Assembly: GCF_015751905.1 (NCBI RefSeq)
Contig: NZ_JADOUF010000001.1
Location: 2,976,001 to 3,040,000 of the forward strand
From: Longispora fulva
GTDB taxonomy: Bacteria; Actinomycetota; Actinomycetes; Mycobacteriales; Micromonosporaceae
Length of the DNA stretch: 64,000 bases
Reading direction: 5' to 3'
The notes below the pieces were generated by a model, which saw only the letters and a list, made by a program, of their open reading frames with translations, was not told the DNA's origin and made no database searches. Positions within the stretch are counted from its first letter, which is position 1; every line of letters starts with the position of its first letter. Both the position numbers and the translations under genes were made by a program. This document shows positions 32,318-47,395 of the stretch, piece by piece.

Positions 32318-32833
32318 CTATGAACTGTTCGGCAAGTAGCAGGGAGACGTAATCATGAACCCAATATTCTCATCGTTGGGCTCGTCAGCATTGATATTGA
32401 ATCCGTCAGCCGGGTTGCGCACGGTGATCGACCACGTGCCGTCCTTCACCTGATGAAGATCTTCAGTGATCTCGTAGTGCTTGTTGCGCCAGTCCTCGCG
32501 CAACTTGTCCAGCGCCGCCTTGTGCTGCTCTGAGGACAGACGAAGGCTGTAGGTCCCGAGGACATAGAACCGGTCGTCCTTGGCCGCCTCACCGTTGCGG
32601 CCCTCGCAAGGCGCCGGTCCGAGGCCGAACTTCTTGCTGGGTGCCTCGGGGTTACCGGTGACGAGTACCGCCAGGTCGCGGAAATACGTCTCGACCTGCT
32701 TGGCGGCGTCGTCCTTGCTCCGGGTCTGCAAGGGCTTCTCCTTGTCGGATGTGCCGCATCCCGCGAGGAGCAGCAATGCCGTGAGCGCGGTAGCAACGCC
32801 TCGGGTCAACTTGGTCGATCTCTTCGAGATCAC
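32318..32833 (-). CDS. lipoprotein of the WXG/hydrolase operon
   Basis: 171 aa with a lipoprotein signal: basic start MISKRSTKLTRG, hydrophobic ATALTALLLLAGC with lipobox LLAGC. The mature part has EVETYFRDLAVLVTG-like sequence and LREDWRNKHYEITEDLHQVK. It should be anchored on the outer face of the membrane. Its start overlaps the stop of the upstream DUF1023 hydrolase (32830-32833), making it the third gene of a coupled operon. The function is unknown. Confidence 0.8.
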   Translation of the reverse strand: MISKRSTKLTRGVATALTALLLLAGCGTSDKEKPLQTRSKDDAAKQVETYFRDLAVLVTGNPEAPSKKFGLGPAPCEGRNGEAAKDDRFYVLGTYSLRLSSEQHKAALDKLREDWRNKHYEITEDLHQVKDGTWSITVRNPADGFNINADEPNDENIGFMITSPCYLPNSS

Positions 32834-34485
32834 GGCGCAGCCTCCACAGTGAGATTGGCCTTTCTCGGCTGGCCGCCGATGATCGCGCCCTGGTTGTGCA
32901 GGCTATCGCTGTCCGGGTCCCAGTAGCCGCTGTGGCCGCTGGTGTCGACGTTGTACCGGTTGGCGCCGAACATCTCGTCGGACGGGGCTGTGTTGTGCGC
33001 GAGTGGGCCGGCCATTGTGACGACGTCTTCGCTGGCCGCCCCGGCGTAGACGTGCCGTGGGTCGATGTGCAGGTCGCGGGCGGAGTTGACGTCCATGCCG
33101 GGGCTGCCTGCGGTCACGATGTCGTCGACGGCGAGGTGCCCGACTTGGGTCGCCTGGCCGATCACGGTAGAACCGTAGCTGTGCCCCACGGCGGTGAAGT
33201 GGGTCGGCGGCCCTTCGTGGCTGGCGCGGAGCCCTCCGACGAACTGGTCTAGCGCCGCACCGCCCTGTTTCGCACGGTCGGATGCTGCGGCGGAGCCATC
33301 CCACTCGGGTGCGTCGTAGCCGATCCACGTCACGACCGAGACCTGCCCGGTGCCTTCTGCGAACTTCGATGCCGAGCCCTGCAGTTGGGCGGCCCGGTCC
33401 ATCTGTCCGCCGATGCTGTTCATCGTGGTTCCGACGCCAGGGACCAGTGTGGCTGTGTGCGCTGCGGTGTCCGGGTCGCCGATGGCGACGATCGCTCGGC
33501 CATCGTGGGTGACGGTGTCCAGGCCGAGAAGAAACGCAGGCGGGTCACCGGCTCCGTTGATCCTGCTGTCGATCTTCCCGAGGGCTGAGTCGCGGGCGTC
33601 GAGGTTGGCGATGGTCGTCATCAGCCGCGCTTCCTCCTGCCCGAGCTTGTCGGCCGCGTACGGGTCGGTCGTGGAGGTGTGGGTGCGGGCTTCGGCCAGC
33701 GCGAGCCGTACGGCTGCGAGTTGGGCTTCGGCGTCGGCGCGCTGGACGGGTATCGCGGCCCGGGCGTCGGCCAGGACGATGCGGTTGGCCTGGTCCCGGT
33801 CGCGGGCAGGCACCCCGTTAAGCCATCCGATCAGTTCCGGGTAGGCGGTGATGGCGTACCCGCGTTCCTCCGGGCTGAGGCCCTGCCACCAGGCGTACAC
33901 CCCCTTGGGGTCCCGTCCACGTTGTGCTTCTACCGCCGCCCGGTCGACCAGGCCGCGGCCGGTGCGCTGTGGGATGACTCCGTCGGGGCTGGGGGTGTTG
34001 GCGGTGATCCTGGCTGCGGTGGTGGCGTCGAGGCTGCGGGCCTGGGTGGTGATGTCGGCGAGGTGCTGCAGCAGGGTGCGGGCCGACATGGTCGGGCGGC
34101 CCATGTTGCCGGGGCCGGACTCGGGTGGGGTGATCGTCCCGGTCTTCGGGTCGATCCCGTAGCCGGCGTCTTCTGCTTCGCTGATCACCTGCAACGCCCG
34201 GCGGCGGAGCGTGATCATGCCGTGGGCGTAGGCGTCCAGCGCCAAGCCGATCTGACGGGTGGCGTTCTCCGCCGCTTCGAGGTCATCTCCCAGCGCGAAC
34301 AGCGCACCGCTGGCGGAAGCCGCGGCCTGGCCTTTGCTCCACACCTGCGGGAGCCGCCGGTTGGCTCGATCCGCGTCACCGGCGGCACTGGTCAGCGCAC
34401 CAGCGATGGTCGACCAACCGGTCGGCAGGAGATGCAGCTCGTCGGGATTCAACGCCAGGAGCTGCGGGATCGTCAGGTCGCTCAC
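32830..34485 (-). CDS. DUF1023-type alpha/beta hydrolase with N-terminal WXG-like helical region
   Basis: 551 aa from GTG 34485. The first 300 residues are helical, with coiled-coil regions that resemble WXG100/PPE-like domains. The C-terminal half is an alpha/beta hydrolase of the DUF1023 type: VTWIGYDAPEWDG, then the nucleophile elbow HFTAVGHSYGSTVIGQA and DDIVTAGSPGMDVNSA. The catalytic Ser is in GHSYGS. Such proteins are typical of type VII secretion-associated loci and may be secreted or act at the envelope. It overlaps its neighbours on both sides by 4 bp. Confidence 0.85.
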   Translation of the reverse strand: MSDLTIPQLLALNPDELHLLPTGWSTIAGALTSAAGDADRANRRLPQVWSKGQAAASASGALFALGDDLEAAENATRQIGLALDAYAHGMITLRRRALQVISEAEDAGYGIDPKTGTITPPESGPGNMGRPTMSARTLLQHLADITTQARSLDATTAARITANTPSPDGVIPQRTGRGLVDRAAVEAQRGRDPKGVYAWWQGLSPEERGYAITAYPELIGWLNGVPARDRDQANRIVLADARAAIPVQRADAEAQLAAVRLALAEARTHTSTTDPYAADKLGQEEARLMTTIANLDARDSALGKIDSRINGAGDPPAFLLGLDTVTHDGRAIVAIGDPDTAAHTATLVPGVGTTMNSIGGQMDRAAQLQGSASKFAEGTGQVSVVTWIGYDAPEWDGSAAASDRAKQGGAALDQFVGGLRASHEGPPTHFTAVGHSYGSTVIGQATQVGHLAVDDIVTAGSPGMDVNSARDLHIDPRHVYAGAASEDVVTMAGPLAHNTAPSDEMFGANRYNVDTSGHSGYWDPDSDSLHNQGAIIGGQPRKANLTVEAAP

Positions 34486-34835
34486 CGCTGCGGCCTGCCG
34501 GTGTCAGGGTCCAGAAGCTGGTGCAGCTGGCGGTGGTGGTCGGCGGCCCGGGTGTCCGCCTGGTCGTAGGCGTTGGCCGCCGCGGTCAGGTTCGTTCCTG
34601 CGGTCGCCAGCCGCGAAGCGGTCGTGGCGAGGGTCGTGTACCAGCGGGTCGCGGCTGTGCGGGCGGCATCCAGGGCTTGTGACCCGGTGGCCTGCTCGGT
34701 TGCGGCGAGGCGGTGCTGGGCTTTGGAGTGGGCGTTGCCCACCGCTGCGGCGGCACCGGAGACCTCACCGCCCAGTTGCCGTAGTGCGCCGGGGTCAACG
34801 ACGGTCTGACCGCCCGCTGTCTCACGGTCTCGCAC
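34482..34835 (-). CDS. WXG100-like/ESX-associated small helical protein
   Basis: 117 aa, GTG start at 34835. Nearly all helical and Ala-rich: DPGALRQLGGEVSGAAAAVG, then a central turn and RWYTTLATTASRLATAGTNL. The size, helix-turn-helix layout and operon position fit ESAT-6/WXG100-like or DUF2580-type proteins. The canonical W-x-G is not obvious, so the call rests on overall pattern and context. It is the first gene of the leftward operon. Confidence 0.65.
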   Translation of the reverse strand: MRDRETAGGQTVVDPGALRQLGGEVSGAAAAVGNAHSKAQHRLAATEQATGSQALDAARTAATRWYTTLATTASRLATAGTNLTAAANAYDQADTRAADHHRQLHQLLDPDTGRPQR

Positions 34836-35037
34836 GAATGCCTACCCCCCGGTCTCGGCTGCTTCGCTGACTCGTCGGCAAGCCTGCCGGAACGGACGAA
34901 GGACCGCAACCCGCTCGGTGCGGCCTATCGGGCCACCGGACTGTGTGTTGCCCGACTTGCACCATCCCCCTACAGTGGTCGCTGCCGCCGCCTACCCATC
35001 GACGGGTGCCCGGTCGGCACAAGGGGAGGGACACCGG
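34836..35037. promoter_or_regulatory. divergent control region between two ESX-associated operons
   Basis: This 202-bp region separates the leftward WXG/hydrolase/lipoprotein operon from the rightward WXG/mycosin operon. It probably holds both promoters. AAGGGGAGGG at 35021-35030 is the ribosome-binding site for the rightward gene. No confident -35/-10 pair could be assigned. Confidence 0.5.
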
Positions 35038-35397
35038 ATGACGGGGACCAGCGGTGGCACCAGCCTCGACCCAGTGGCAGTCGCAGCACTGCTCGGCCGG
35101 TTGGACGGCTTGGATGCGGTGCTCACGGGCGCACGCGTCGTCGACGAGCAGACAGGCAAGAAGCAGCATGATTTCGACGCCGACGCCCGGCAGTTCGCTG
35201 CCGGTTCGGGGCTGGCCTCGGCGTTGGAGCTGGCACGACGCTGCGGGAGCGGCATCAAGGACGCCCACGTGGTCGTGCGGTCGATGGACACCGACTTCGC
35301 CAGCCTTATCAGCAAAGCCACGACAGCTGTGCGGTCCACCGGCGGCGCGGACATGGCCTCGGCCGATGGGGTCGAGCGTTCCGGTGAGGTGTGGTGA
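35038..35397 (+). CDS. WXG100/DUF2580-like ESX-associated protein
   Basis: 119 aa from ATG 35038 behind a strong AAGGGGAGGG site. It is helical: DPVAVAALLGRLDGLDAVLT, then SGLASALELARRCGSGIKDA and FASLISKATTAV. The layout is like the ESX secretion-associated helical proteins of actinomycetes. It overlaps the next gene's start (TGATG, 35395-35399). It is probably an export substrate or chaperone for the adjacent WXG/Pro-Gly protein, by inference. Confidence 0.65.
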   Translation: MTGTSGGTSLDPVAVAALLGRLDGLDAVLTGARVVDEQTGKKQHDFDADARQFAAGSGLASALELARRCGSGIKDAHVVVRSMDTDFASLISKATTAVRSTGGADMASADGVERSGEVW

Positions 35398-36716
35398 TGG
35401 CAGAAGACAACGGGCCCAGCCTCGACAGCCGCGGGCTGTTCGCCCAGCTGGCCAAGATGATCCGCGCCGACGACCCGCAGCAGCTGCGCAACAACGCCGA
35501 CGCCTGGCTGACCCTGTCGCGCGGCCTGCACGAGCGCGCCTCGACTGTGCGCCGCGAGGCCGACGAGCTGGCCCGGATCTGGCCGGACGCGACCGGTTCG
35601 ACGATCGCGTCGGCCCTGCACAACCACGCTGCCAACCTCGAACGCGAAGCAGGCACGTACCAGCACAACCACGGAATGGTCACCAACGCCGCCGCCGCGC
35701 TCACCGAGGCCCAGACCAAACTCGACGCGATCGAGAACGACCCCAGCACCACAGAAGCCAAAGCCGCCGCGGCCCAGGACATCATCACAGCGCTCGACGG
35801 CGACTACCAGACCAGCCACTCCCGGATGCAGAGCCCACAACTGGGCACGGCGATTTACGGGAATGAGCGACCGGTCGCCGGCGGCGAACCCCATCCCGAC
35901 TGGACCAGCACCGATGCGGGCGAAACGCCTGGTCACGCAGCACCGGGCACTCCCGGAACACCACCAAGTCCGGGCGCGCCAGCGCCCTCGCCAGGTGAGC
36001 ACGGAACGACGCCCCGAGACGAACCGCCCATCGAGATACCACCAGGGATCCCGGAGCGACCCCCAGCCGGTGGCGGAGGTGGGCTGGCCGGCGGCGGTGG
36101 ACCGGGCGGTTTCGGCGGAGCGGTCACCAGCGGCGGGCCTTCGGGCCTTGGCGGCATCAACCTCGGTCCGAATGGCGGACCTGTGATGGGCGGCAGCTCG
36201 CCTGCGGACCCGCTGGGGCCCTCCGGGTTCGGAGCTGGTAGAGGGCCAGGTCCCGGGGTTCCGTTCGGCACGAGCGCAGGTGCCGGGCGATCTGGTGGCA
36301 GCGGTCCGGGGATGCCAGGCGTCCCCGGTGCCGGACAGGGCGCTGGAAACTCGCGGAGCCGTCGCCGTTCCAGCCGTGCGGTCGGCGACTGGTTGGCCGT
36401 CGACAACCACGCCGCACCGGCCGTGCTCGGTGGACGCCGCCGAGCCAGCGACGACAACTCCCCCGAGGCCCACCGCTGGGAGGAGGCCGACCAGCCCTTC
36501 GGTCAAGACGAGGAACAGCCGTTCGACCTGCTCGGCATCACCACCGACGCCGGCCCGGGACCCGCCGACGACGTCTGGGAGTACATCGACGTCGACACCG
36601 CCGACGACGAACCAGACGAGGCCGGCCGGGACTGGCGCGACGGGCTCACCGACACCGAGCTGGCGGTGTGGTCGACAATGTCAGGTGTGCAACTCGCCCC
36701 CAGGTCCTCTCCGTGA
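35397..36716 (+). CDS. WXG-domain protein with Pro/Gly-rich linker
   Basis: 439 aa from ATG 35397. Residues about 25-145 form a long WXG/PPE-like helical domain: ADAWLTLSRGLHERASTVRR, ADELARIWPDATGSTIASAL and AANLEREAGTYQHNHG. Residues about 160-320 are Pro/Gly-rich low complexity. The acidic C-terminal tail has DVWEYIDVDTADDEPDEAGR and WRDGLTDTELAVWS. This matches type VII secretion-associated proteins of Pseudonocardiales and Streptomyces. It overlaps the mycosin gene by GTGA (36713-36716). Confidence 0.75.
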   Translation: MAEDNGPSLDSRGLFAQLAKMIRADDPQQLRNNADAWLTLSRGLHERASTVRREADELARIWPDATGSTIASALHNHAANLEREAGTYQHNHGMVTNAAAALTEAQTKLDAIENDPSTTEAKAAAAQDIITALDGDYQTSHSRMQSPQLGTAIYGNERPVAGGEPHPDWTSTDAGETPGHAAPGTPGTPPSPGAPAPSPGEHGTTPRDEPPIEIPPGIPERPPAGGGGGLAGGGGPGGFGGAVTSGGPSGLGGINLGPNGGPVMGGSSPADPLGPSGFGAGRGPGPGVPFGTSAGAGRSGGSGPGMPGVPGAGQGAGNSRSRRRSSRAVGDWLAVDNHAAPAVLGGRRRASDDNSPEAHRWEEADQPFGQDEEQPFDLLGITTDAGPGPADDVWEYIDVDTADDEPDEAGRDWRDGLTDTELAVWSTMSGVQLAPRSSP

Positions 36717-37861
36717 CAGGTCGCCACCAGCGGCGGCTCGGGCGGGCGGTCGCGGGCAGCCTGGCCGCCTTGGTCATCCTGACCGCGACCCCGGCCTGGG
36801 CCGACGGCGTTCGTGACAAACAGTGGCACCTGCCCGTTCTCCACGCCGCCGAAGCGCAGGCAATCAGCCAGGGCGATGGCATCATCGTCGCGGTCATCGA
36901 CTCGGGAGTTGAGGCCACCCACCCGGATCTCGTCGGCAACGTGCTTCCAGGTGTGGACCTCACTGGCGGGACAGGTGACGGGAGCACCGACACCCACGGG
37001 CACGGCACCGCCATGGCTTCCGATATCGCCGGCCACGGGCACGGCGATGCCAGTGGTGTACTGGGGCTGGCTCCGAAGGCCAAGATCCTGCCCGTCCGGA
37101 TCGCCACCGGTGCAAGCGGCGGCGACCTCGGCACCGGCATGCACTGGGCCGTGGATCATGGTGCGAAGATCCTCAACGTATCCAGGACATCCGCTGACCT
37201 GTCCAGCGTGCGCGAGGCCACCGACTACGCGCTCGCCAAGGGGGCGATCGTCGTCGCGGGCACCGGCAATGAAGGTGCCACCGTCGGGGCCCCCGCGATG
37301 TATCCGGGCGTGATCGCCGTCAGCGGTCTGGACAAGGCCGGCGCACTGTGGGCCTCGTCGAACCGCGGGCGCGAAACCGTTCTGGCAGCACCAGCTGTCG
37401 ACATCACCTCGGCCCGAAACGGTAACCGATACGCAATGGCCGACGGCACCTCCGACGCCACCGCGCTCGTATCCGCCACCGCAGCCCTCATCTGGTCGCA
37501 GTACCGCCAGCTCGACGCCAACAACGTCATCAACCGCCTCATCAGCACCGCTGACGACAAGGGCGTGCCCGGCAGGGACGACCAGTACGGGTTCGGCGCC
37601 GTCAATCCCTACCGTGCCCTGACCGAGAACGTCCCCTCGGTGTCGACCAACCCGCTCGTCGCGCAGACATCGTCGAGCACTCCGAGTGCTGTGCCCGATC
37701 TGGGAACTCCGACGGGCAACCCAGCCGATGATTATGGTCCTTCGCGTGGAACCTACCTGGCGATCATCGGTGTGCCGATTGCCGTTGTGCTGGGGGTCTT
37801 GGGCGTGGTTGTAGCGGTGTTCGTGCGCCGTCGCCGACGAGCCGCGAGAGCCCAATCCTGA
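36713..37861 (+). CDS. mycP: type VII secretion-associated serine protease mycosin
   Basis: 382 aa from GTG 36713. It has a signal peptide (residues 1-30, cleavage after AWA), then the subtilisin triad Asp63 (VAVIDSGVEATHPDL), His97 (THGHGTAMASDIAG) and Ser247 (ADGTSDATALVS), with oxyanion Asn186 (GTGNEG). A C-terminal membrane helix (YLAIIGVPIAVVLGVLGVVV) and basic tail complete the mycosin architecture. In ESX systems MycP caps the secretion complex and cleaves substrates. No EccB, EccC, EccD or EccE gene is in this window, so the channel must be encoded elsewhere if it exists. Confidence 0.92.
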   Translation: MTGRHQRRLGRAVAGSLAALVILTATPAWADGVRDKQWHLPVLHAAEAQAISQGDGIIVAVIDSGVEATHPDLVGNVLPGVDLTGGTGDGSTDTHGHGTAMASDIAGHGHGDASGVLGLAPKAKILPVRIATGASGGDLGTGMHWAVDHGAKILNVSRTSADLSSVREATDYALAKGAIVVAGTGNEGATVGAPAMYPGVIAVSGLDKAGALWASSNRGRETVLAAPAVDITSARNGNRYAMADGTSDATALVSATAALIWSQYRQLDANNVINRLISTADDKGVPGRDDQYGFGAVNPYRALTENVPSVSTNPLVAQTSSSTPSAVPDLGTPTGNPADDYGPSRGTYLAIIGVPIAVVLGVLGVVVAVFVRRRRRAARAQS

Positions 37862-37882: not shown

Positions 37883-38260
37883 TCATAAGGGCGAGGCCGT
37901 TCGAGCAAGAATCCAGCTGGGCTCTGGTCCTGGAACTGGCATGAGCTGGTAGCAGATTGCCGGATCAAGGTCTTCGTCGCAGAACAGCGTCGGGACCGTG
38001 ATGGCGTAGTTGCCCGTCCGGGCGAGCCGGTGCACCATTGCCTCGCTCAAGAGCCCGCCGGTGACCACCCAGCCGGTCCCGTCGTGGCGCAGCTCGAAGG
38101 AGCCCTGGGCGGTCATCCAGTTCTGGGGTACCAGTGTCCCGTCGGCGGCAAGGAGTTCGAGCCCAAAAGGCTGGCAGCCGCCGGTGGTTGGGTCCGGGCG
38201 CGTGGTGTCGAGGATGCCGATCACCGGTCCGACGCTCGTCGTCTCGGATGTGTCGCTCAT
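37883..38260 (-). CDS. conserved hypothetical protein
   Basis: 125 aa from ATG 38260, with AGAGAGGAAC upstream. It is beta-rich: VGPVIGILDTTRPDPTTGGC, then PFGLELLAADGTLVPQNWMT and GTGWVVTGGLLSEAMVHRLA. No domain is recognised and there is no signal peptide or membrane segment. It converges with the mycosin gene and lies 185 bp downstream of the phosphotransferase of the radical SAM operon, so it could be its last member. Confidence 0.55.
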   Translation of the reverse strand: MSDTSETTSVGPVIGILDTTRPDPTTGGCQPFGLELLAADGTLVPQNWMTAQGSFELRHDGTGWVVTGGLLSEAMVHRLARTGNYAITVPTLFCDEDLDPAICYQLMPVPGPEPSWILARTASPL

Positions 38261-38389: not shown

Positions 38390-39205
38390 TCAACTGGTTG
38401 CGATGCCTCGCCACTGGGCCCAGTCGCGGACGACGGCAACCATGCACTGCTTCCAGTCCGCCGGATCATTGGCGGCGATCTCGTCCCACTGGCGGACGCT
38501 TGCGGCGGCGAACGCGTCCAGCGCCCGGTCCGGAGCCGCTTTCCACGCGGGAATCTGTGCAGCGATAGCCTCAGCCTGTTCGGGTGTATGCCCAGCTTCC
38601 AGGAGTCGGAGCACGAAGCAGGCGGGGTCGATCCAGGCCGCGCCTCGGGTGGGCCAGGCCCAGTCGATGATCCAGGCAGCGTCGTCAGTGCCTATCAGGA
38701 TGTTGACCGGGTTGAAGTCGGTGTGCAGGAGCGTGTCGCCCTCGAACAGCGCGAGATCGTCGGGGTCGGCGGCGTAGCTGGCCCAGCGCTGGGGCGCGTG
38801 CTTGAGCTCGGGCAGCTCCGGGCACGGCAGCCCGCCTAGGGTGTTCATGACCTCGATGACGCCGGGTAGGTCCGCCGAGCCGGGCGTGTAGTCGGCGTGG
38901 CGGCCCTGGACGTACTCGAAGCCGAGGAGGTCCCAGCCGTCGACGTCGACCTGCCACAGCATCCGGGGAGACACCTGCAGCACGTACGGGTTGATGGCTG
39001 CTTCTCGTCGCTGGGTGATGACGCCGCGGTGGTCCAGGCGCAGGCCCTTGACGAAGATCGTGTCCCCGGATTCCAGGGTCAGGAATGCCGCGATCTGGGA
39101 GTTGAGACCTTCGGCTGCGGTGGTGCCACTGGTCACGGGCCCGGTGCGGGCGGTGATCGCGTCGCGGACGCTGCCGGGTAGGTCGGTCCAGTCGGTGCGC
39201 TGCAT
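38390..39205 (-). CDS. aminoglycoside phosphotransferase-family kinase-like protein
   Basis: 271 aa from ATG 39205 (GAGGGAACC upstream). APH-fold motifs: GDTIFVKGLRLDHRGVITQR (nucleotide-binding Lys), the catalytic loop DTLLHTDFNPVNILIGTDDA, and the metal motif AWIIDWAWPTRGAAWIDPAC. It follows the precursor peptide gene, separated by a perfect hairpin. Actinobacterial RiPP loci often include such kinases, but whether it phosphorylates the peptide, confers immunity or acts on something else is unknown. Confidence 0.88.
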   Translation of the reverse strand: MQRTDWTDLPGSVRDAITARTGPVTSGTTAAEGLNSQIAAFLTLESGDTIFVKGLRLDHRGVITQRREAAINPYVLQVSPRMLWQVDVDGWDLLGFEYVQGRHADYTPGSADLPGVIEVMNTLGGLPCPELPELKHAPQRWASYAADPDDLALFEGDTLLHTDFNPVNILIGTDDAAWIIDWAWPTRGAAWIDPACFVLRLLEAGHTPEQAEAIAAQIPAWKAAPDRALDAFAAASVRQWDEIAANDPADWKQCMVAVVRDWAQWRGIATS

Positions 39206-39269
39206 GGTTCCCTCGTGGGTCGTGGGCGGAGGGCCTTTGGGAAGGTTACCGATCGCCCCGTGGGTGGTG

Positions 39270-39301
39270 GTCGGGGCTGGTTGTGACACGCCAGCCCCGA
39301 C
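39270..39301 (-). terminator. hairpin between precursor peptide and phosphotransferase genes
   Basis: A perfect 11-bp stem pairs GTCGGGGCTGG (39270-39280) with CCAGCCCCGAC (39291-39301) around a 10-nt loop. It begins 12 bp after the precursor stop codon. This is a good place for a partial terminator or an mRNA-stabilising hairpin that would raise precursor expression over the kinase gene. Confidence 0.75.
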
Positions 39302-39312
39302 TCGAGGTTTGG

Positions 39313-39459
39313 TTAGTAGGGTGCGTCGTCGCCGGCGTTGCAGGAGCACATCGTCGACTCGACGAGCTCGTCGAGGTCTCCGATGAACTGGACGGTGTCG
39401 GCGTCGGTGCCCTCGGTCAGGCGGGTCGGTCCGAGTTCGAGCAGTGCGGTGGGTGACAT
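39313..39459 (-). CDS. putative RiPP precursor peptide (48 aa, C-terminal CSCNAGDDAPY)
   Basis: 48 aa from ATG 39459. The start has an excellent ribosome-binding site (GAGGAGGAA, overlapping the stop of the radical SAM gene). The leader is MSPTALLELGPTRLTEGTDA followed by DTVQFIGDLDELVEST. The tail is M-C-S-C-N-A-G-D-D-A-P-Y, with Cys38 and Cys40. An acidic helical leader, a short Cys-containing core and a position directly after a SPASM radical SAM enzyme together indicate a ribosomally made, modified peptide. The modification (thioether, C-C or epimerisation) cannot be told from sequence. The gene is too short for usual ORF callers. Confidence 0.8.
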   Translation of the reverse strand: MSPTALLELGPTRLTEGTDADTVQFIGDLDELVESTMCSCNAGDDAPY

Positions 39460-39474
39460 GAGCGTTCCTCCTCT

Positions 39475-40575
39475 TCAGTGTTGGCAGAACATGTTGAGCG
39501 GGGCCTTGGCCTGCCGGTAGAGCTTCACCAGGGGCGGGCAGGTCCCGCAGGTCCCCTGCAAGGTGCACCCGGTGCAGGCGCCCTGCCGGAGCATGAGGCC
39601 GTCGGCGATCCCGCCGAGGCGACGTAGTCCCTCCAGGCCCTCGTCCATGAGGTGGATCTGGGGGTCGCGGCCGACCTTGCAGATCGAGGCGCGGCCGTGG
39701 GGGTCGACGTGGAAGAAGGTGTGTCCGGCGTTGCAGCCGGTGAAGGGCCTTCGGGCGCGCAGGTACTTCTGCGACTGGGCGGGGATGGATTCCGGGCCGC
39801 CGTAGATCGTCGGGGACATGTTCGCGTACACCTGATGCGGGCTGTCATACCGCCCAGCCAGCGCTTCCATCGCCTCGACCTCGTGGGCGTTGGCGTCGCA
39901 CACGATGACGTTCAACCGCAGCGGCAGCCCGGCCGCGTGCGCCGCGTCGAGTCCGGCGATGAACTTCCGGAACGTGCCCTTGCGACGCGTCACAGCGTCG
40001 TAGGTGGCCTCGGTCGCCCCGTACACCGACACCGTGATCCGGTACGGGCGCATCGTGGTCAGCAGTTCCAAGATCTTCGGGCTCGACAGCCGTGACCCGT
40101 TGGTGCTGATGCTGATCATCATCCCCAGCTGGTAGGCCAGGGTGTACACCTCGGGGAAGAACTGGTCGATCGTCGGCTCACCGCCGGTGAGCTGCACCCA
40201 CAGCACCCCCGCGTCACGCAGGATGTGCAGGAGCCGCTGGCGGCCCTCCAGGTCCAGGCCCTCGAAGCGCTTCTCCCCGAGGTAGCAGAAGTCGCAGCCG
40301 AAGTTGCAGCCCAGGTTCAACTCGTAGGACGCCCGGCTGTAGCCGAAATCGGACGGCTCACGCACCAGCACGGCCTCGGCCGCCGGCTGGGTCGCGATGT
40401 CCAGCCTCCAGCCGGTCTGGGCAGCCTCCCCGAGCCAGCGCGGGACCAACTCACCCTCAGCGGTGGCACGTTGGATCTCCGCGAACCGTTGGCGGCCGAT
40501 CTTGATTCCGTTGGAGTGGCCGGGGCGGACCAGGAGGAAGTCGTCCAGAAACTTCGCGGCGATGATCTGGTGCAT
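39475..40575 (-). CDS. radical SAM/SPASM peptide maturase
   Basis: 366 aa from ATG 40575 (GAGGAG upstream). The radical SAM cluster motif CxxxCxxC is Cys90, Cys94, Cys97 (LGCNFGCDFCYLG), with the SAM-binding GGEP at 131-134. The C-terminal part has seven further Cys at 281, 299, 334, 337, 343, 346 and 364 (TGCNAGH, ASICKVG, CTGCTLQGTCGTCPP, FCQH), the pattern of a SPASM domain with auxiliary iron-sulfur clusters. Such enzymes modify ribosomal peptides. The candidate substrate is encoded 15 bp downstream. No RiPP-recognition element is evident in the first 80 residues, though a winged-helix fold there is not excluded. Confidence 0.93.
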   Translation of the reverse strand: MHQIIAAKFLDDFLLVRPGHSNGIKIGRQRFAEIQRATAEGELVPRWLGEAAQTGWRLDIATQPAAEAVLVREPSDFGYSRASYELNLGCNFGCDFCYLGEKRFEGLDLEGRQRLLHILRDAGVLWVQLTGGEPTIDQFFPEVYTLAYQLGMMISISTNGSRLSSPKILELLTTMRPYRITVSVYGATEATYDAVTRRKGTFRKFIAGLDAAHAAGLPLRLNVIVCDANAHEVEAMEALAGRYDSPHQVYANMSPTIYGGPESIPAQSQKYLRARRPFTGCNAGHTFFHVDPHGRASICKVGRDPQIHLMDEGLEGLRRLGGIADGLMLRQGACTGCTLQGTCGTCPPLVKLYRQAKAPLNMFCQH

Positions 40576-40583
40576 GGGGCTCC

Positions 40584-40931
40584 TCACGTCAGGCTCCACA
40601 GCTCCCACCGGGGCGTCTTCTTCCCGGCGGTCGCGTCGGCGCGGATCTCGTAGGTGCAGTCGGAGTTGAGCCAGCACTCGCCGCGCTCGGTCGGCAGCGA
40701 GGCGATGGACCGGTCCTTGCGGGTGATCTTGTGCCGTCGGTCCTGCGGGTCGACGGCGAACCAGTCGCCGTCCTCGGCAGCCAGGTTGTAGGAGGTTCCG
40801 GGTACCAGCCAGAACCGGCGTGCGCCGTCCGGGCCGGCGGCTTCGAGGCTGATGACGCAGGCTGAGCCCCATTCGGGGTCGTACCAGGTGTCGAGTGCGG
40901 CGATGCGGATCGCCGTGTCGGCGGTGGTCAT
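40584..40931 (-). CDS. small protein of the radical SAM operon, paralogue A
   Basis: 115 aa from ATG 40931. Beta-rich with GARRFWLVPGTSYNLAAEDG, DWFAVDPQDRRHKITRKDRS and CTYEIRADA. Eight bp separate its stop from the radical SAM start, so it is in the same operon. It is similar in layout to the next upstream product (a shared F-W-L-x-P-x-x-x-Y-x-L block and a G-x-x-W/F-x-V strand). Function unknown. A peptide-binding accessory role is a guess from its position. Confidence 0.75.
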   Translation of the reverse strand: MTTADTAIRIAALDTWYDPEWGSACVISLEAAGPDGARRFWLVPGTSYNLAAEDGDWFAVDPQDRRHKITRKDRSIASLPTERGECWLNSDCTYEIRADATAGKKTPRWELWSLT

Positions 40932-40956
40932 GCTGCGGTCCTTGTCGTGTTGAGGT

Positions 40957-41319
40957 TCAGCCGATGAGCCAGGCATCCCAGCCGGCGGCGCCGTGCTGGA
41001 GGAAGTACACAGAGCCGTAGTCCAGCGGCAGCTGTTCGCCGGTCGAGGTCGGCAGTGCCAGGGGCGATGGGCTGCGGGCGGTGAGGTAGTAGATCCGCTC
41101 GGCCATGAGCCAGTCAGAGGAGCGGACCTCCCAGCCCAGCCCGTTGAACACCAACCGGTAGGTCTCCCACGGGGCCAGCCAGAACGCAACGATCTCGCTG
41201 CTCGTAGCGCTTTCCACGCGCAGTCCCGGCAGCTGGTGTCGACACCGACCGGTGCTGCTAGGCGCCTCGGTGGCCAGGGTCGCGAGCAGGATGCAGCCCG
41301 CCATCGGCGGCGCGGTCAC
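40957..41319 (-). CDS. small protein of the radical SAM operon, paralogue B
   Basis: 120 aa, GTG start at 41319 overlapping the upstream stop (GTGA, 41316-41319). It has VAFWLAPWETYRLVFNGLGW, EVRSSDWLMAERIYYLT and GSVYFLQHGAAGWDAWLIG. The FWLAPWETYRL segment aligns with FWLVPGTSYNL of the neighbouring product, so the pair probably arose by duplication. No known domain is recognised. Confidence 0.75.
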   Translation of the reverse strand: MTAPPMAGCILLATLATEAPSSTGRCRHQLPGLRVESATSSEIVAFWLAPWETYRLVFNGLGWEVRSSDWLMAERIYYLTARSPSPLALPTSTGEQLPLDYGSVYFLQHGAAGWDAWLIG

Positions 41320-41564
41320 TTTCGGTTCCCGGTGGCCGGGGGCTTGAGGCCCGCGAAGTTGACGAACACCCGGCGCCTGGCCGTGGCGTCACCCCGGTCG
41401 TCCAGCACGTAACCCTCCAGGTAGCCCCAGCCACCGACCGAGGACTTGGCAATGACGGCGACGACGCGCACCAGGAGAGGCCGCCCGAACTGGGGGCTGG
41501 CGGCCTTGGTCAGCCGGACCACATCTCCGGCCTGGAGTGGCTGGCTGAGGATCGTTGAGCTCAT
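41316..41564 (-). CDS. small beta-rich protein, first gene of the radical SAM operon
   Basis: 82 aa from ATG 41564. Sequence such as LQAGDVVRLTKAASPQFGRP, then LVRVVAVIAKSSVGGWGYLE and GYVLDDRG, resembles a small SH3/KOW-like barrel. It may bind nucleic acid or peptide. It overlaps paralogue B by 4 bp. It is divergent from the XRE regulator at 41810 with 245 bp between starts. Confidence 0.65.
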   Translation of the reverse strand: MSSTILSQPLQAGDVVRLTKAASPQFGRPLLVRVVAVIAKSSVGGWGYLEGYVLDDRGDATARRRVFVNFAGLKPPATGNRK

Positions 41565-41809
41565 CGCGGATCACATCCATCGCGTCGTCGGGCTGAACGG
41601 GAGCCCTCCTGGCTCGCGTCGGGCGGTACGCTGAGTCACCGACCGACCACCACGAGAGGTGCGTCTATAGGTAACTCCCCCGGCTGCCGACGAGGCCAGC
41701 ATGACGTTGTTGTCTTCGTGTTGTCTCTGCACGTCAGACGGCGTTCGACAGTCGTTGTCATGGGCGGATGGCGATACAGTCGCTCTAGGACAGAGAGGTC
41801 CCCAAACAG
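41565..41809. promoter_or_regulatory. divergent control region of the radical SAM operon and XRE regulator
   Basis: No gene is found in this 245 bp. Three direct copies of GTTGTC lie at 41709-41714, 41720-41725 and 41754-41759. The first two are 11 bp apart, about one helical turn, which could suit a repeated operator. The XRE gene product is the obvious candidate ligand. No confident sigma-70 promoter was assigned. Confidence 0.45.
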
Positions 41810-43162
41810 ATGACACGACGTCTTCTCAGCTCGCCGGACGCGCTCAGGCATCCCCTGAGCTACGTTCGTCATGAGCGGGGCTGGACGCTTCAGGATCTCG
41901 TCGATGTCATCGCCTGGCGGGTCGGGAACATGGCCGCCCGCCGCGAGAAGGCTTGGAAGTGGGAGAACTGGGGAGTCGTACCCGATGTCGAGACGCAACT
42001 CGCCCTCGCCCGCGAACTGGGGGTACAGCCCGAGCTGGTTCAGGCACTCGGGTGGCCGAGCTGGCTGCCCGTCGGCGACCAGATCACCCAGGACACGCCG
42101 TGGTCAGCCGACGGAGCCTTCGCCCAGCTCGACGCCACCGCTGGGTCGGCGATGGTAGACCGCCGCGGCTTCCTGATCATGGGAACCGGCATCGCCACCC
42201 GCCTGGCCGACGACTGGCTCAACATCGACAGCCAGCAGCTCGTCTCCGTGCTCCGCGGCGGCCGAGTCGACGCCGGCCTGGTCGCCTGCTTCGAGCAGCG
42301 CCTCCCCCAGCTCCGCAAGATCGAGGCCGCCATCGGCGGGGGCAACATCCGCAGCGTCGTCGACACCGAGCTGCGCCTCGTCACCGATCTGATCGCCCAT
42401 GGCTCCTACACCGCTGACATCGCCCAACGGCTGTTCACCGTCGCCGGCGAGCTCGGCTGTGTCGCCGGCTGGACCAGTTTTGACGCTGGCTGGCACGCGG
42501 CGGCCGAGCGGTACTGGGTCGCAGCCCTGCACGCAGCCCACACCGCCGGCGACCGAGGACTCGGGGCGAACGTGCTTAAGTGCATGAGCTTGCAGCGCGT
42601 CGACGCCGAACGGCCCACCGAGGCTCTCGGCATCGCCCGAGCCGGCCTTGAGGGCGCTCGCAACGCGCAGGGCCCGGTCGTGGCGATGCTGGCCGTCCGC
42701 CAGGCCCGAACCCACGCCATGCTCGGGGACGCCAGCGAGTGCGAGCAGCTACTCCTCCTCGCATCACAAGCGATGGAGCGTCCGGAGAACCGGCCGACGC
42801 CGCACTGGGCGGCGTACTTTGACCGCTCCGAGTACTGCGCCCAGGTCGCCGCCTGCTACCAGCAACTCGGCCGCCACCAGACCACGAACGAATGGCTCAC
42901 CCAGGCGCTCGCCCAGCAGCCCGAGGACCGCAACCGGGACCGCGCGACCTACCTCATCTGGCACGCTGATGCGGTGCTCAACCTCGGCGACGTCGAACAC
43001 GCCTGCGCCCTCGTCAGCCAAGCCGTGCCCGACATCGCCGTCGCTCGCTCGGCGCGCAACCAGAAGCGGCTCAACGACATCCACGCAAAGATTAAAATCC
43101 ACCGCAACGTACCGGCCGTCGACCTGCTCACCCAGCAGGTCCGCGAACTGGCCGCAGCCTAG
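41810..43162 (+). CDS. XRE-family regulator with TPR-like domain
   Basis: 450 aa from ATG 41810. The N-terminal HTH covers residues about 10-75 (LRHPLSYVRHERGWTLQDLV, then KWENWGVVPDVETQLALARE). A long helical TPR-like region runs from about 150 to the end, with HAAHTAGDRGLGANVLKCMS and AACYQQLGRHQTTNEWLTQA. This design is common in actinomycetes, where the TPR part often senses a peptide or small ligand. Being divergent from the RiPP-like operon makes it a likely regulator. The stop is 9 bp before the SDR gene. Confidence 0.9.
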   Translation: MTRRLLSSPDALRHPLSYVRHERGWTLQDLVDVIAWRVGNMAARREKAWKWENWGVVPDVETQLALARELGVQPELVQALGWPSWLPVGDQITQDTPWSADGAFAQLDATAGSAMVDRRGFLIMGTGIATRLADDWLNIDSQQLVSVLRGGRVDAGLVACFEQRLPQLRKIEAAIGGGNIRSVVDTELRLVTDLIAHGSYTADIAQRLFTVAGELGCVAGWTSFDAGWHAAAERYWVAALHAAHTAGDRGLGANVLKCMSLQRVDAERPTEALGIARAGLEGARNAQGPVVAMLAVRQARTHAMLGDASECEQLLLLASQAMERPENRPTPHWAAYFDRSEYCAQVAACYQQLGRHQTTNEWLTQALAQQPEDRNRDRATYLIWHADAVLNLGDVEHACALVSQAVPDIAVARSARNQKRLNDIHAKIKIHRNVPAVDLLTQQVRELAAA

Positions 43163-43171
43163 GGAGCACGC

Positions 43172-43873
43172 ATGGTTCAGCGCGTCGCACTGGTCACCGG
43201 CGCCAACCGCGGCCTCGGCCTCGCCATCGCCCGCAGGCTGGCCAAGGAGGGCCTGCACGTCATCGCCGCAGCCCGAAGCGAGCGAGCTGCCTTCGAGACC
43301 GCCGCGCTCCTGACCGCTGAGGGCCTGTCCGTGTCCGGCCACCAGCTCGACGTCACCGACCCGGCCAGCGTCGCACGGGCCATGGCCGACGCCGGATACG
43401 AACACGGACGCCTCGACGTCCTGATCAACAACGCCGCCGTCGCCATCGACCGCGGGCAGGCCGCCGCATCGGCCGACATGGAGAAGGTCCAGGCAACCCT
43501 CGACGCCAACCTTACCGGTGCCTGGCGGTGCTGCACCGCCGCGATCCCTGAGATGCGCCGCAACGGCTACGGCCGCATCGTCAACGTCACCACCCACATG
43601 GCCACCTTCGCGCGCATGGGGACCGGCAGTGTCGCCTACCGCGTGTCCAAGACCGCGCTCAACGCCCTGACGTGCATACTCGCCGCCGAACTTGCATCCG
43701 ACAACATCCTCGTCAACGCGGCCTCACCCGGCAAGGTCGCCACCCGAATGGCCTACGGCAAAGCCGACCGAGCCCCCGAAGAGGCAGCCGACACCTTCGT
43801 CTGGCTCGCGACGCTCTCCGATGATGGGCCAACCGGCCAGCTGTTCCATGACCGCCAGCCGTTGGCCTGGTAG
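43172..43873 (+). CDS. short-chain dehydrogenase/reductase
   Basis: 233 aa from ATG 43172. Cofactor motif TGxxxGxG is VTGANRGLGLAIARRL, then LDVLINNAAVA. The catalytic Tyr-Lys pair is SVAYRVSKTALN, and NILVNAASPGKVATRMAYG closes the fold. The usual Ser before the Tyr is probably replaced within IVNVTTHMATF by a Thr. It is co-transcribed with the XRE regulator. It may be part of the same pathway, but an unrelated function is equally possible. Confidence 0.93.
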   Translation: MVQRVALVTGANRGLGLAIARRLAKEGLHVIAAARSERAAFETAALLTAEGLSVSGHQLDVTDPASVARAMADAGYEHGRLDVLINNAAVAIDRGQAAASADMEKVQATLDANLTGAWRCCTAAIPEMRRNGYGRIVNVTTHMATFARMGTGSVAYRVSKTALNALTCILAAELASDNILVNAASPGKVATRMAYGKADRAPEEAADTFVWLATLSDDGPTGQLFHDRQPLAW

Positions 43874-46512: not shown

Positions 46513-47395
46513 GAAGCTGTCCTGTAACTGATCTTGGCAGGGGTTGAGCCACCCCGATCGGTCGATCAGGGTGGCTCAGCTCGTCAAGGCAAGGTTGTGC
46601 ATGCGGGCGACGGCGAGGGCGGCGAGGTGCACGCCGTCGCCTCGGCGTCGGCAGTCGCGGAGGATCTTCCAGCACTTCATGCGGGCGAAGACGTGTTCGA
46701 CGCGGGCCCGGACGCGGCGGTGGGACGCGTTGTGTTCTTCCCGCCACGGGTCCAGGTCGACCTGTCCGGCGCGACGGCGGTGTGGGATGAGCAGGCCGGT
46801 GCCCTGGTAGCCGCCGTCAGCGATCACGATCGCCGTGCCGGCACGCTTGTCGACGCCGGACTCGGCGTATGCCACGCAGTCGTTGCGGTTGCCCGGCAGC
46901 GGCCGCCCGATCGCGACGACCAGACGCGTGTCGGCGTTGATCAGGACCTGCAGATTCACGCTCGTGCGGTAGTTCTTCGACGATGCGCCGACAGCCCGGT
47001 CCCGGGTCGGGACAAGTGTGCCGTCGACGACCAAGACCTCGCCTCTACGACGGGGCGTTGGCTGTAGCGCCAGGAACGGGCCGAGGCGTTCGATGATCCG
47101 CCCCGCGGCCGAGTGCGTGATTCCGAACAGCGGCCCGACCTGGCGCATCGTCAGATTGGTCCGGTAGTAGCAGGCCACCAGCAACACCCGGTCCGCCAAC
47201 GGCAACGACCACTGTCGACACGCCCGCCCATCGGCCACCGCCGCCCCGCCGAGCCGGGCGACCTGGCGCACCAGGACCCGAAACTGCCGCACCGACAGCC
47301 CACTGAACAGCTCCACCCACTGCCGCTCCGACGCGGTGATCACAGCCACGCCAAGATCGTCGATCAAGCTCAGCGAAGCGTTACAGGACAGCCTC
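46513..47395 (-). mobile_element. complete IS5-family (IS427-like) insertion sequence, 883 bp
   Basis: Terminal inverted repeats of 16 bp with one mismatch lie at 46513-46528 (GAAGCTGTCCTGTAAC) and 47380-47395. The flanking dinucleotide TA occurs on both sides (46511-46512 and 47396-47397), matching the 2-bp TA duplication typical of the IS427 group. One intact transposase gene fills the element. The intact ends and open frame suggest a fairly recent insertion. Confidence 0.92.
46576..47367 (-). CDS. IS5-family DDE transposase
   Basis: 263 aa. An N-terminal helix-turn-helix region (LTMRQVGPLFGITHSAAGRI) is followed by the DDE_Tnp_4-type catalytic core. The acid residues are in VLVVDGTLVPTRD, IVIADGGYQGTG and ARVEHVFARMKCWKIL. 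All three are present and the frame is unbroken, so the protein should be active. Translation from the ATG at 47367, about 28 bp inside the right terminal repeat. Confidence 0.95.
   Translation of the reverse strand: MIDDLGVAVITASERQWVELFSGLSVRQFRVLVRQVARLGGAAVADGRACRQWSLPLADRVLLVACYYRTNLTMRQVGPLFGITHSAAGRIIERLGPFLALQPTPRRRGEVLVVDGTLVPTRDRAVGASSKNYRTSVNLQVLINADTRLVVAIGRPLPGNRNDCVAYAESGVDKRAGTAIVIADGGYQGTGLLIPHRRRAGQVDLDPWREEHNASHRRVRARVEHVFARMKCWKILRDCRRRGDGVHLAALAVARMHNLALTS

What the first reader, a model, noticed from the sequence alone, without database searches (positions are those of the whole stretch)
38390..43873. Candidate undescribed radical SAM RiPP locus with a 48-aa precursor ending CSCNAGDDAPY
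Seen: a 48-codon ORF (39313-39459, minus strand) with a strong ribosome-binding site directly after a radical SAM/SPASM gene with a CxxxCxxC motif and seven further Cys. The same operon has two related small proteins, a third small protein and an APH-type kinase. An XRE-TPR regulator and an SDR are divergent. Known: SPASM radical SAM enzymes beside short Cys-bearing ORFs usually mature RiPPs. Inferred: Cys38 and/or Cys40 or neighbouring residues of the C-terminal dozen are modified. I do not recognise the precursor type as sactipeptide, ranthipeptide or streptide.
Basis: partly seen in the sequence, partly recalled or inferred. Interest (0 to 1): 0.85.

Follow-up and report, generated by a model that had tools for sequence, protein, structure and literature searches.

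The report
Undescribed radical-SAM peptide pathway with kinase
Soil actinobacteria, and at least one of their viruses, carry a small gene set that appears to make a chemically remodelled peptide ending in letters like GDDNPY, and its partner kinase was found only where that tyrosine is present.

Summary
The 48-aa ORF (39313-39459, minus) is real: a small ORF ending C-x(1-5)-[DNE]-[DNS]-[NQAV]-P-[YHFN] follows the radical SAM gene in 123 of 128 homologous loci, against 0 of 1500 control windows. Its core is under purifying selection. The enzyme keeps CxxxCxxC plus seven SPASM Cys; its modelled N-terminus has the strand-helix order of an RRE and its nearest folds include the RiPP maturases SkfB and SuiB. 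No NCBIfam or Pfam model matches the precursor.

New: the APH-like kinase belongs to the system and tracks the last core residue. In 141 distinct loci, 106 of 106 with the kinase have P-Y; 0 of 32 with P-H, P-F or P-N have it. 23 loci fetched after the idea was formed obey it. 32 of the 35 kinase-free loci carry a GNAT-like protein. The whole triad also sits on Streptomyces phage Success.

Best reading: a new rSAM-RiPP family whose kinase acts on the C-terminal Tyr, as a tailoring or self-protecting step. The crosslink and the biological role are not shown; the strict independent-pair test is not significant (p 0.125).

The parts
39313..39459 (-). precursor peptide gene (48 aa); leader about residues 1-36, core about 37-48
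   Evidence: selection
39316..39348 (-). codons of the core CSCNAGDDAPY (Cys38 to Tyr48); Cys40 is the universal Cys
39467..39473 (-). GAGGAGG ribosome-binding site of the precursor gene
   Evidence: sequence
39475..40575 (-). radical SAM/SPASM maturase (366 aa) with RRE-like N-terminal domain
38390..39205 (-). APH-superfamily kinase (271 aa), catalytic residues kept
   Evidence: link with Tyr
41810..43162 (+). NsdA-family TPR-like regulator, divergent; HTH regulators of three kinds lie upstream in 87 of 118 loci
40584..40931 (-). small protein of 115 aa before the rSAM gene; local, not conserved in the system
40957..41319 (-). small protein of 120 aa, weakly related to the 115-aa one; local
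41316..41564 (-). small protein of 82 aa; local
43172..43873 (+). SDR oxidoreductase after the regulator; probably not part of the system
   Evidence: its cluster is in 2 of 49 loci

Best explanation
This is an undescribed family of rSAM-dependent RiPPs. Shown by sequence: a precursor with a variable leader and a conserved C-terminal core, encoded directly after (often overlapping) its own SPASM radical SAM enzyme and followed by an APH-type kinase or a GNAT-like protein. Inferred: the N-terminal RRE-like domain binds the leader; the radical SAM site makes a bond that involves the one universal Cys and the Asp/Asn-rich stretch before the Pro (a thioether is my first guess, about 35%); the kinase transfers phosphate to the C-terminal Tyr (about 55%), as a tailoring step or as a cap that keeps the product harmless to its maker. 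An HTH regulator controls the operon. No exporter or protease was seen among the commonest neighbours, so release would use host enzymes, or the product acts inside the cell.
For: Slot conservation 123 of 128 against 0 of 1500, 23 of 24 further loci; core motif; purifying selection; precursor start overlapping the rSAM stop by 4 nt in 71 of 117; Cys set; model resembling SkfB and SuiB. Kinase and Tyr: 106 of 106 kinase loci have P-Y, 0 of 32 non-Tyr loci have the kinase; in the 23 loci fetched afterwards 17 of 17 and 0 of 5. The residue never changes over 29.0 units of kinase-bearing tree and changes five times over 8.2 units without (p 5e-4 if rates were equal), plus twice on branches of kinase loss; the other varying core positions change mostly on kinase-bearing branches. 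Kinase catalytic residues kept at 94-100% in 86 sequences.
Against: Parsimony counts only about four kinase losses; the independent-pair sign test gives 4 for, 0 against, p 0.125 (p 0.5 on the first 118 rows). Three Tyr loci lack this kinase (L070, L072, L259). The tree is a quick one, states were placed by parsimony, and the idea came from the first 118 rows. The kinase was sought only in the stretch held, usually about 4 kb downstream. The RRE rests on the secondary structure of a model; no RRE-type Pfam profile matched. No chemistry was observed. The last SPASM motif is CX2CX5CX2C, not the usual CX2CX5CX3C (usual form recalled).
Confidence: 0.62

Rival explanations
1. The kinase and the GNAT are self-resistance enzymes: the radical SAM product is toxic, and the maker phosphorylates its Tyr or acylates it elsewhere, as producers do with aminoglycosides, macrolides or streptothricin. 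The module would then be a competition or addiction cassette. This is one of the two arms of the best explanation, stated alone.
For: All 123 precursor-bearing loci of the first set have the kinase, the GNAT or c20. The kinase model is nearest to LicA and to macrolide and aminoglycoside phosphotransferases; the one PDB sequence match of a GNAT is nourseothricin acetyltransferase, weak (E 0.003). Carriage on phage and plasmids.
Against: No conserved exporter among the neighbours scanned, which a secreted toxin would usually need; these folds also serve ordinary metabolism; one Tyr locus (L259) lacks the family enzymes.
Confidence: 0.3
2. The product is an intracellular or secreted signal sensed by the HTH/TPR regulator encoded next to it.
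For: HTH regulators of three kinds upstream in 87 of 118 loci; no conserved exporter or protease among the neighbours scanned.
Against: The regulators are of at least three different families, which would not be expected of one receptor; HTH genes of these kinds are very common in actinobacteria (recalled).
Confidence: 0.15
3. The peptide is the source of a small cofactor-like molecule cut from its end, as in mycofactocin or PQQ.
For: rSAM enzyme gives sub-threshold matches to MftC and PqqE; C-terminal Tyr in the window; no conserved exporter among the neighbours scanned.
Against: The aromatic residue is replaced by H, F or N in 32 of 141 rows and in the single-Cys type is usually followed by one or two more residues; MftC score 62.9 of 265.
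Confidence: 0.1
4. The kinase is only a hitchhiking neighbour and the link with Tyr reflects shared ancestry.
For: Few independent losses; sign test p 0.125.
Against: The kinase is kept over the whole tree including the phage; rate contrast p 5e-4; the rule held in the loci fetched later.
Confidence: 0.15
5. The ORF is not coding or not a RiPP precursor.
For: No product known.
Against: 123 of 128 against 0 of 1500; purifying selection; ribosome-binding sites and stop-start overlap.
Confidence: 0.02

Closest known systems
Sactipeptide and streptide maturases (SkfB, SuiB, CteB)
   Same: Radical SAM plus SPASM enzymes that mature an adjacent short precursor (recalled); closest solved RiPP folds.
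   Different: Precursor with another motif; one universal Cys; a kinase or GNAT is part of the operon; the enzyme is far below the NCBIfam cut-offs of StsB and SkfB.
Ranthipeptides such as freyrasin made by PapB (recalled)
   Same: Cys and Asp in a short core; in the two-Cys type the universal Cys and the first Asp are spaced C-x3-D.
   Different: The single-Cys type has C-x-[DNE]-D; no repeated CX3D modules; the crosslink is untested.
Mycofactocin (MftA/MftC; recalled)
   Same: Actinobacterial rSAM/SPASM enzyme beside a short precursor with C-terminal Tyr.
   Different: Tyr is preceded by Pro, is replaceable and not always terminal; MftC model score 62.9 against a cut-off of 265.
Class V lanthipeptide and thioamitide phosphotransferases (SprPT; passages of PMC7794033)
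   Same: APH-type kinase in an actinobacterial RiPP operon.
   Different: Those pair with a HopA1-like protein for dehydration and cyclisation; none of the 8 window proteins scanned hits HopA1, and no Ser or Thr is conserved in the core.

Membership tests
rSAM-dependent RiPP (general) | Short precursor encoded beside a radical SAM/SPASM enzyme and conserved with it | tested here: met
   123 of 128 slots, 0 of 1500 controls; 23 of 24 further loci
rSAM-dependent RiPP (general) | Radical SAM CxxxCxxC and SPASM auxiliary-cluster Cys | tested here: met
   Ten Cys invariant in 35 sequences; the last motif is CX2CX5CX2C, a slight variant
rSAM-dependent RiPP (general) | RiPP recognition element | tested here: inconclusive
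   Model residues 1-71: three strands, then helices; matches to SkfB and SuiB; no RRE-type Pfam profile hit
rSAM-dependent RiPP (general) | Chemical modification of the core | not testable with these tools
   Needs mass spectrometry
Sactipeptide | Cys-S to C-alpha thioether | not testable with these tools
   No chemistry available
Sactipeptide (NCBIfam StsB and SkfB models) | Maturase above the curated cut-off | tested here: not met
   58.3 of 625 and 44 of 300 bits
Ranthipeptide | CX3D/E spacing in the core (recalled) | tested here: inconclusive
   Fits the two-Cys type, not the single-Cys type
Mycofactocin | MftC equivalog score | tested here: not met
   62.9 of 265 bits
FxSxx-COOH peptides (recalled) | C-terminal FxSxx | tested here: not met
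   The window precursor ends DDAPY
Streptide (recalled) | Lys-x3-Trp in the core | tested here: not met
   The window precursor has neither Lys nor Trp
Class V lanthipeptide | HopA1-like partner of the kinase | tested here: not met
   No Pfam HopA1 hit in the 8 window proteins scanned; the other loci were not searched for it
Viperin-type defence (pVip) | Viperin-type enzyme without SPASM (recalled) | tested here: not met
   Hit to the rSAM core only, 61.4 bits; full SPASM Cys set present

The most novel reading that the evidence does not exclude
A phage- and plasmid-borne RiPP module in which a radical SAM enzyme makes a bioactive cyclic peptide and a dedicated small-molecule-type kinase (or, in sister lineages, an acyltransferase) modifies its C-terminal residue as antidote or switch: a RiPP family with a dedicated tyrosine phosphotransferase, spread as an addiction or competition cassette.
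Probability: 0.2. Interest if true: 0.85.

Novelty: new variant of a known kind. Interest (0 to 1): 0.64.

Why it matters
It adds a widespread RiPP family whose precursor no model of NCBIfam or Pfam matches. Its enzyme is in 70 of 392 genomes searched of the genus of G480, which is Streptomyces, in 25 of 300 of the window's own family, own genome included, and in 25 of 250 of another family. It ties a kinase of the antibiotic-resistance fold to one residue of a peptide, which can be tested directly, and it shows a complete RiPP cassette on a phage of Streptomyces, which bears on what phages gain from natural-product genes.

Tried and rejected
Chance ORF: rejected. Small upstream proteins as partners of the system: no clear homologue in the 128 loci. 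SDR as part of the cluster: its cluster is in 2 of 49 loci. Known rSAM families: 53 NCBIfam models matched the rSAM enzyme at E up to 1; the 25 shown are all far below their cut-offs. Defence: PADLOC gave hits for the rSAM enzyme only, to viperin models. The viral-contig scan gave two distant partial hits. The pdb_via library was not available. The independent-pair tests were not significant; this counts against my reading of the kinase.

Literature: searches showed no paper on this family. One search (five core strings plus radical SAM, at least two together) found 0 papers. One search (six core strings, any one) listed 20 of 42 papers, all of the 20 by the string CSCNA in unrelated fields. 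Only open-licence PMC text was searched and supplements were not open to me. I read passages of PMC7794033; the other papers I saw only as search listings with the start of the abstract.

Limits of the counts: the precursor search used a pattern that itself asks for a Cys, a Pro and one of Y, H, F, N or W after it, so their constancy is partly by construction; what limits this is that only 5 of 128 and 1 of 24 loci had no match. Two of the five and the one are cut by a contig end, one (L206) has a broken rSAM gene and a precursor of the usual kind, and two are decayed. Rows dropped: 128 loci became 118 tree rows by removing loci without a match, rSAM rows under 300 aa and identical rSAM sequences; of 24 new loci L263 was dropped. 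The 128 loci hold some genomes twice, under a name and a handle. The 46 pairs were chosen at 60% or more amino-acid identity, which pushes pN/pS down.
Full report
What is there. The 48-codon ORF at 39313-39459 (-) has a strong ribosome-binding site and starts 15 nt after the stop of a radical SAM gene of 366 codons (39475-40575). An APH-like kinase gene (38390-39205) follows. A divergent NsdA-family regulator (41810-43162) and an SDR lie on the other strand. Three small proteins (40584-41564) precede the rSAM gene; two of them are weakly related.

Is it more than chance. Homologues of the rSAM enzyme were found in 25 of 300 genomes of the same family (E up to 1e-40), 16 of 394 of the class (1e-60), 6 of 396 of the phylum (1e-50; these three include the window's own genome), 70 of 392 of the genus of G480 (1e-60), and 6 of 35 and 25 of 250 of two more families (1e-80). 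The draws overlap. G480 is Streptomyces: its contig 2 has the length and the match coordinates of a named Streptomyces plasmid. Five close named genomes came and plasmid and phage records. Of 128 loci read, 123 have a small ORF of the motif in the 486-nt slot after the rSAM gene; 1500 control windows in the same loci have none, nor does the reverse strand of the slot. Of the five others two end at a contig edge, one has a broken rSAM gene with a precursor of the usual kind still there, and two are decayed. The precursor start overlaps the rSAM stop by 4 nt in 71 of 117. Over 46 pairs pN/pS is 0.255 in the last 12 codons and 0.678 in the 18 before.

Anatomy of the peptide. Two core types occur, C-S-C-N-A-G-D-D-N-P-Y (window type, ending DDAPY in the window) and G-C-G-D-D-N-P-Y-N. 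In 118 rows, Pro is in all (the search pattern asks for it), Asp two before it is in 115, and three before it stands D (105), N (10) or E (3). One Cys is aligned in all of 117 precursors. After the Pro stands Y in 91 rows, H in 20, F in 4 and N in 3. The leader is variable with a common start like MTAVxVEI and a patch like IxxVxDLDxL; a loose pattern for that patch matched 85 of 117.

The enzyme. Ten Cys (three radical SAM, seven SPASM) are invariant in 35 sequences. The model (mean pLDDT 84.4, weaker in the SPASM part) has an N-terminal three-strand, helix-rich domain as in an RRE; the best PDB matches are SkfB, BlsE and SuiB. It is far below the cut-offs of all 25 NCBIfam models shown.

The kinase tracks the Tyr. 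After the precursor lies the kinase, or a GNAT-like protein, or both; two P-F loci (L100, L107) have only an unknown protein, c20. In the first 118 rows 89 of 89 kinase rows have P-Y; of the 29 without the kinase 27 are not Tyr and two are (L070, L072). I then fetched 24 new loci: 23 had a precursor; 17 of 17 kinase loci have Tyr; 5 of 5 non-Tyr loci (all P-F) have the GNAT and no kinase; one Tyr locus (L259) has neither, but its downstream stretch holds frames that look like another GNAT and another APH-like protein (by eye). Over all 141 rows: kinase 106, all Tyr; non-Tyr 32, none with the kinase; Tyr without it 3. On the tree the residue never changes over 29.0 units of kinase-bearing branches; it changes five times over 8.2 units without the kinase and twice on branches where the kinase is lost (p 5e-4 under equal rates). 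The other varying core positions change mostly on kinase-bearing branches (118 rows), so this is not general relaxation. The independent-pair test gives 4 for and 0 against, p 0.125, not significant. The kinase was sought only in the DNA held, about 4 kb downstream or more in all but five rows. The kinase keeps its catalytic residues (K53, E68, H161-x-D163, N168, D181) at 94-100% in 86 sequences, models at pLDDT 96.3 and is nearest to choline kinase LicA and to macrolide and aminoglycoside phosphotransferases. The GNAT is a GNAT by Pfam and is the replacement in 32 of 35 kinase-free rows.

Setting. HTH regulators of three kinds lie within 5 kb upstream in 87 of 118 loci. Pfam scans of representatives of 18 of the other common neighbour clusters gave HTH proteins, a HATPase_c_2 protein (cluster in 20 loci), a NUDIX protein (16 loci), a small GNAT, DUF218, DUF6879, WbqC, an inositol-phosphatase-like protein and eight without a hit, but no exporter or protease. 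The full triad is genes 1-3 of Streptomyces phage Success, annotated kinase, hypothetical protein and oxidoreductase, and lies on a phage-like plasmid of S. nigrescens. A phage-like plasmid of strain NBC_01220 has the rSAM gene, a P-F precursor and c20.

How it most likely works. Shown: co-conservation, core motif, intact enzymes, the kinase-Tyr link with the limits told. Inferred: leader binding by the N-terminal domain; a radical bond with the universal Cys; phosphorylation of the Tyr; a role as product, signal or protected toxin. Because Tyr is replaceable where the kinase is gone, the radical step probably does not need its phenol, while the kinase probably does.

Novelty. It works like an rSAM RiPP and meets the defining features of that kind that I could test, except that the RRE is inconclusive and the chemistry untestable. 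It fails the tests made here for mycofactocin, streptide, FxSxx, the sactipeptide maturase models and, in the window, the HopA1 partner of class V lanthipeptides; ranthipeptide-type chemistry is open. Searches (open-licence PMC only) showed no paper on it. I rate it a new variant of a known kind.

Noticed in passing
L106:8001-10115 (Streptomyces phage Success, record 266-2380): A complete rSAM, precursor and kinase triad sits at one end of a phage genome that also has a tyrosine recombinase and HTH genes; annotated as oxidoreductase, hypothetical protein and kinase.
   Followed up: partly
L108:2077-4724 and L107:9232-11089: The system also lies on phage-like plasmids of Streptomyces nigrescens and Streptomyces sp. 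NBC_01220; the latter has a P-F precursor and c20 but no kinase.
   Followed up: partly
L259, downstream of the rSAM gene: A P-Y locus without the family kinase has, by eye, a GNAT-like frame of another type on the opposite strand and another APH-like frame: perhaps a third replacement.
   Followed up: no
L203 and L214: Decaying loci: in L203 the rSAM match stops at residue 321 and its frame also holds the GNAT match, with no precursor found; in L214 the rSAM gene is broken and a kinase lies on the other side.
   Followed up: no
L107:10577-11089, L108:4281-4724 and others (c20): A protein of about 150-170 aa without Pfam hit follows the two P-F single-Cys precursors and also accompanies some kinase loci.
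   Followed up: no
L150:2535-3089 and 19 other loci: A HATPase_c_2 protein (anti-sigma-like) lies between regulator and rSAM gene, same strand as the rSAM gene, in 20 of 118 loci.
   Followed up: no
window 32830-37861: Type VII secretion-like genes next door: WXG100-like proteins, an alpha/beta hydrolase with a weak WXG-like N-terminus and a subtilase.
   Followed up: no
window 37883-38260 (-): 125-aa protein after the kinase is weakly similar to the 120-aa small protein before the rSAM gene (E 5e-5 as a single pair), which suggests a local family of three.
   Followed up: no
window 46576-47367 (-): DDE transposase gene (PF01609, PF13359) about 3 kb beyond the SDR.
   Followed up: no
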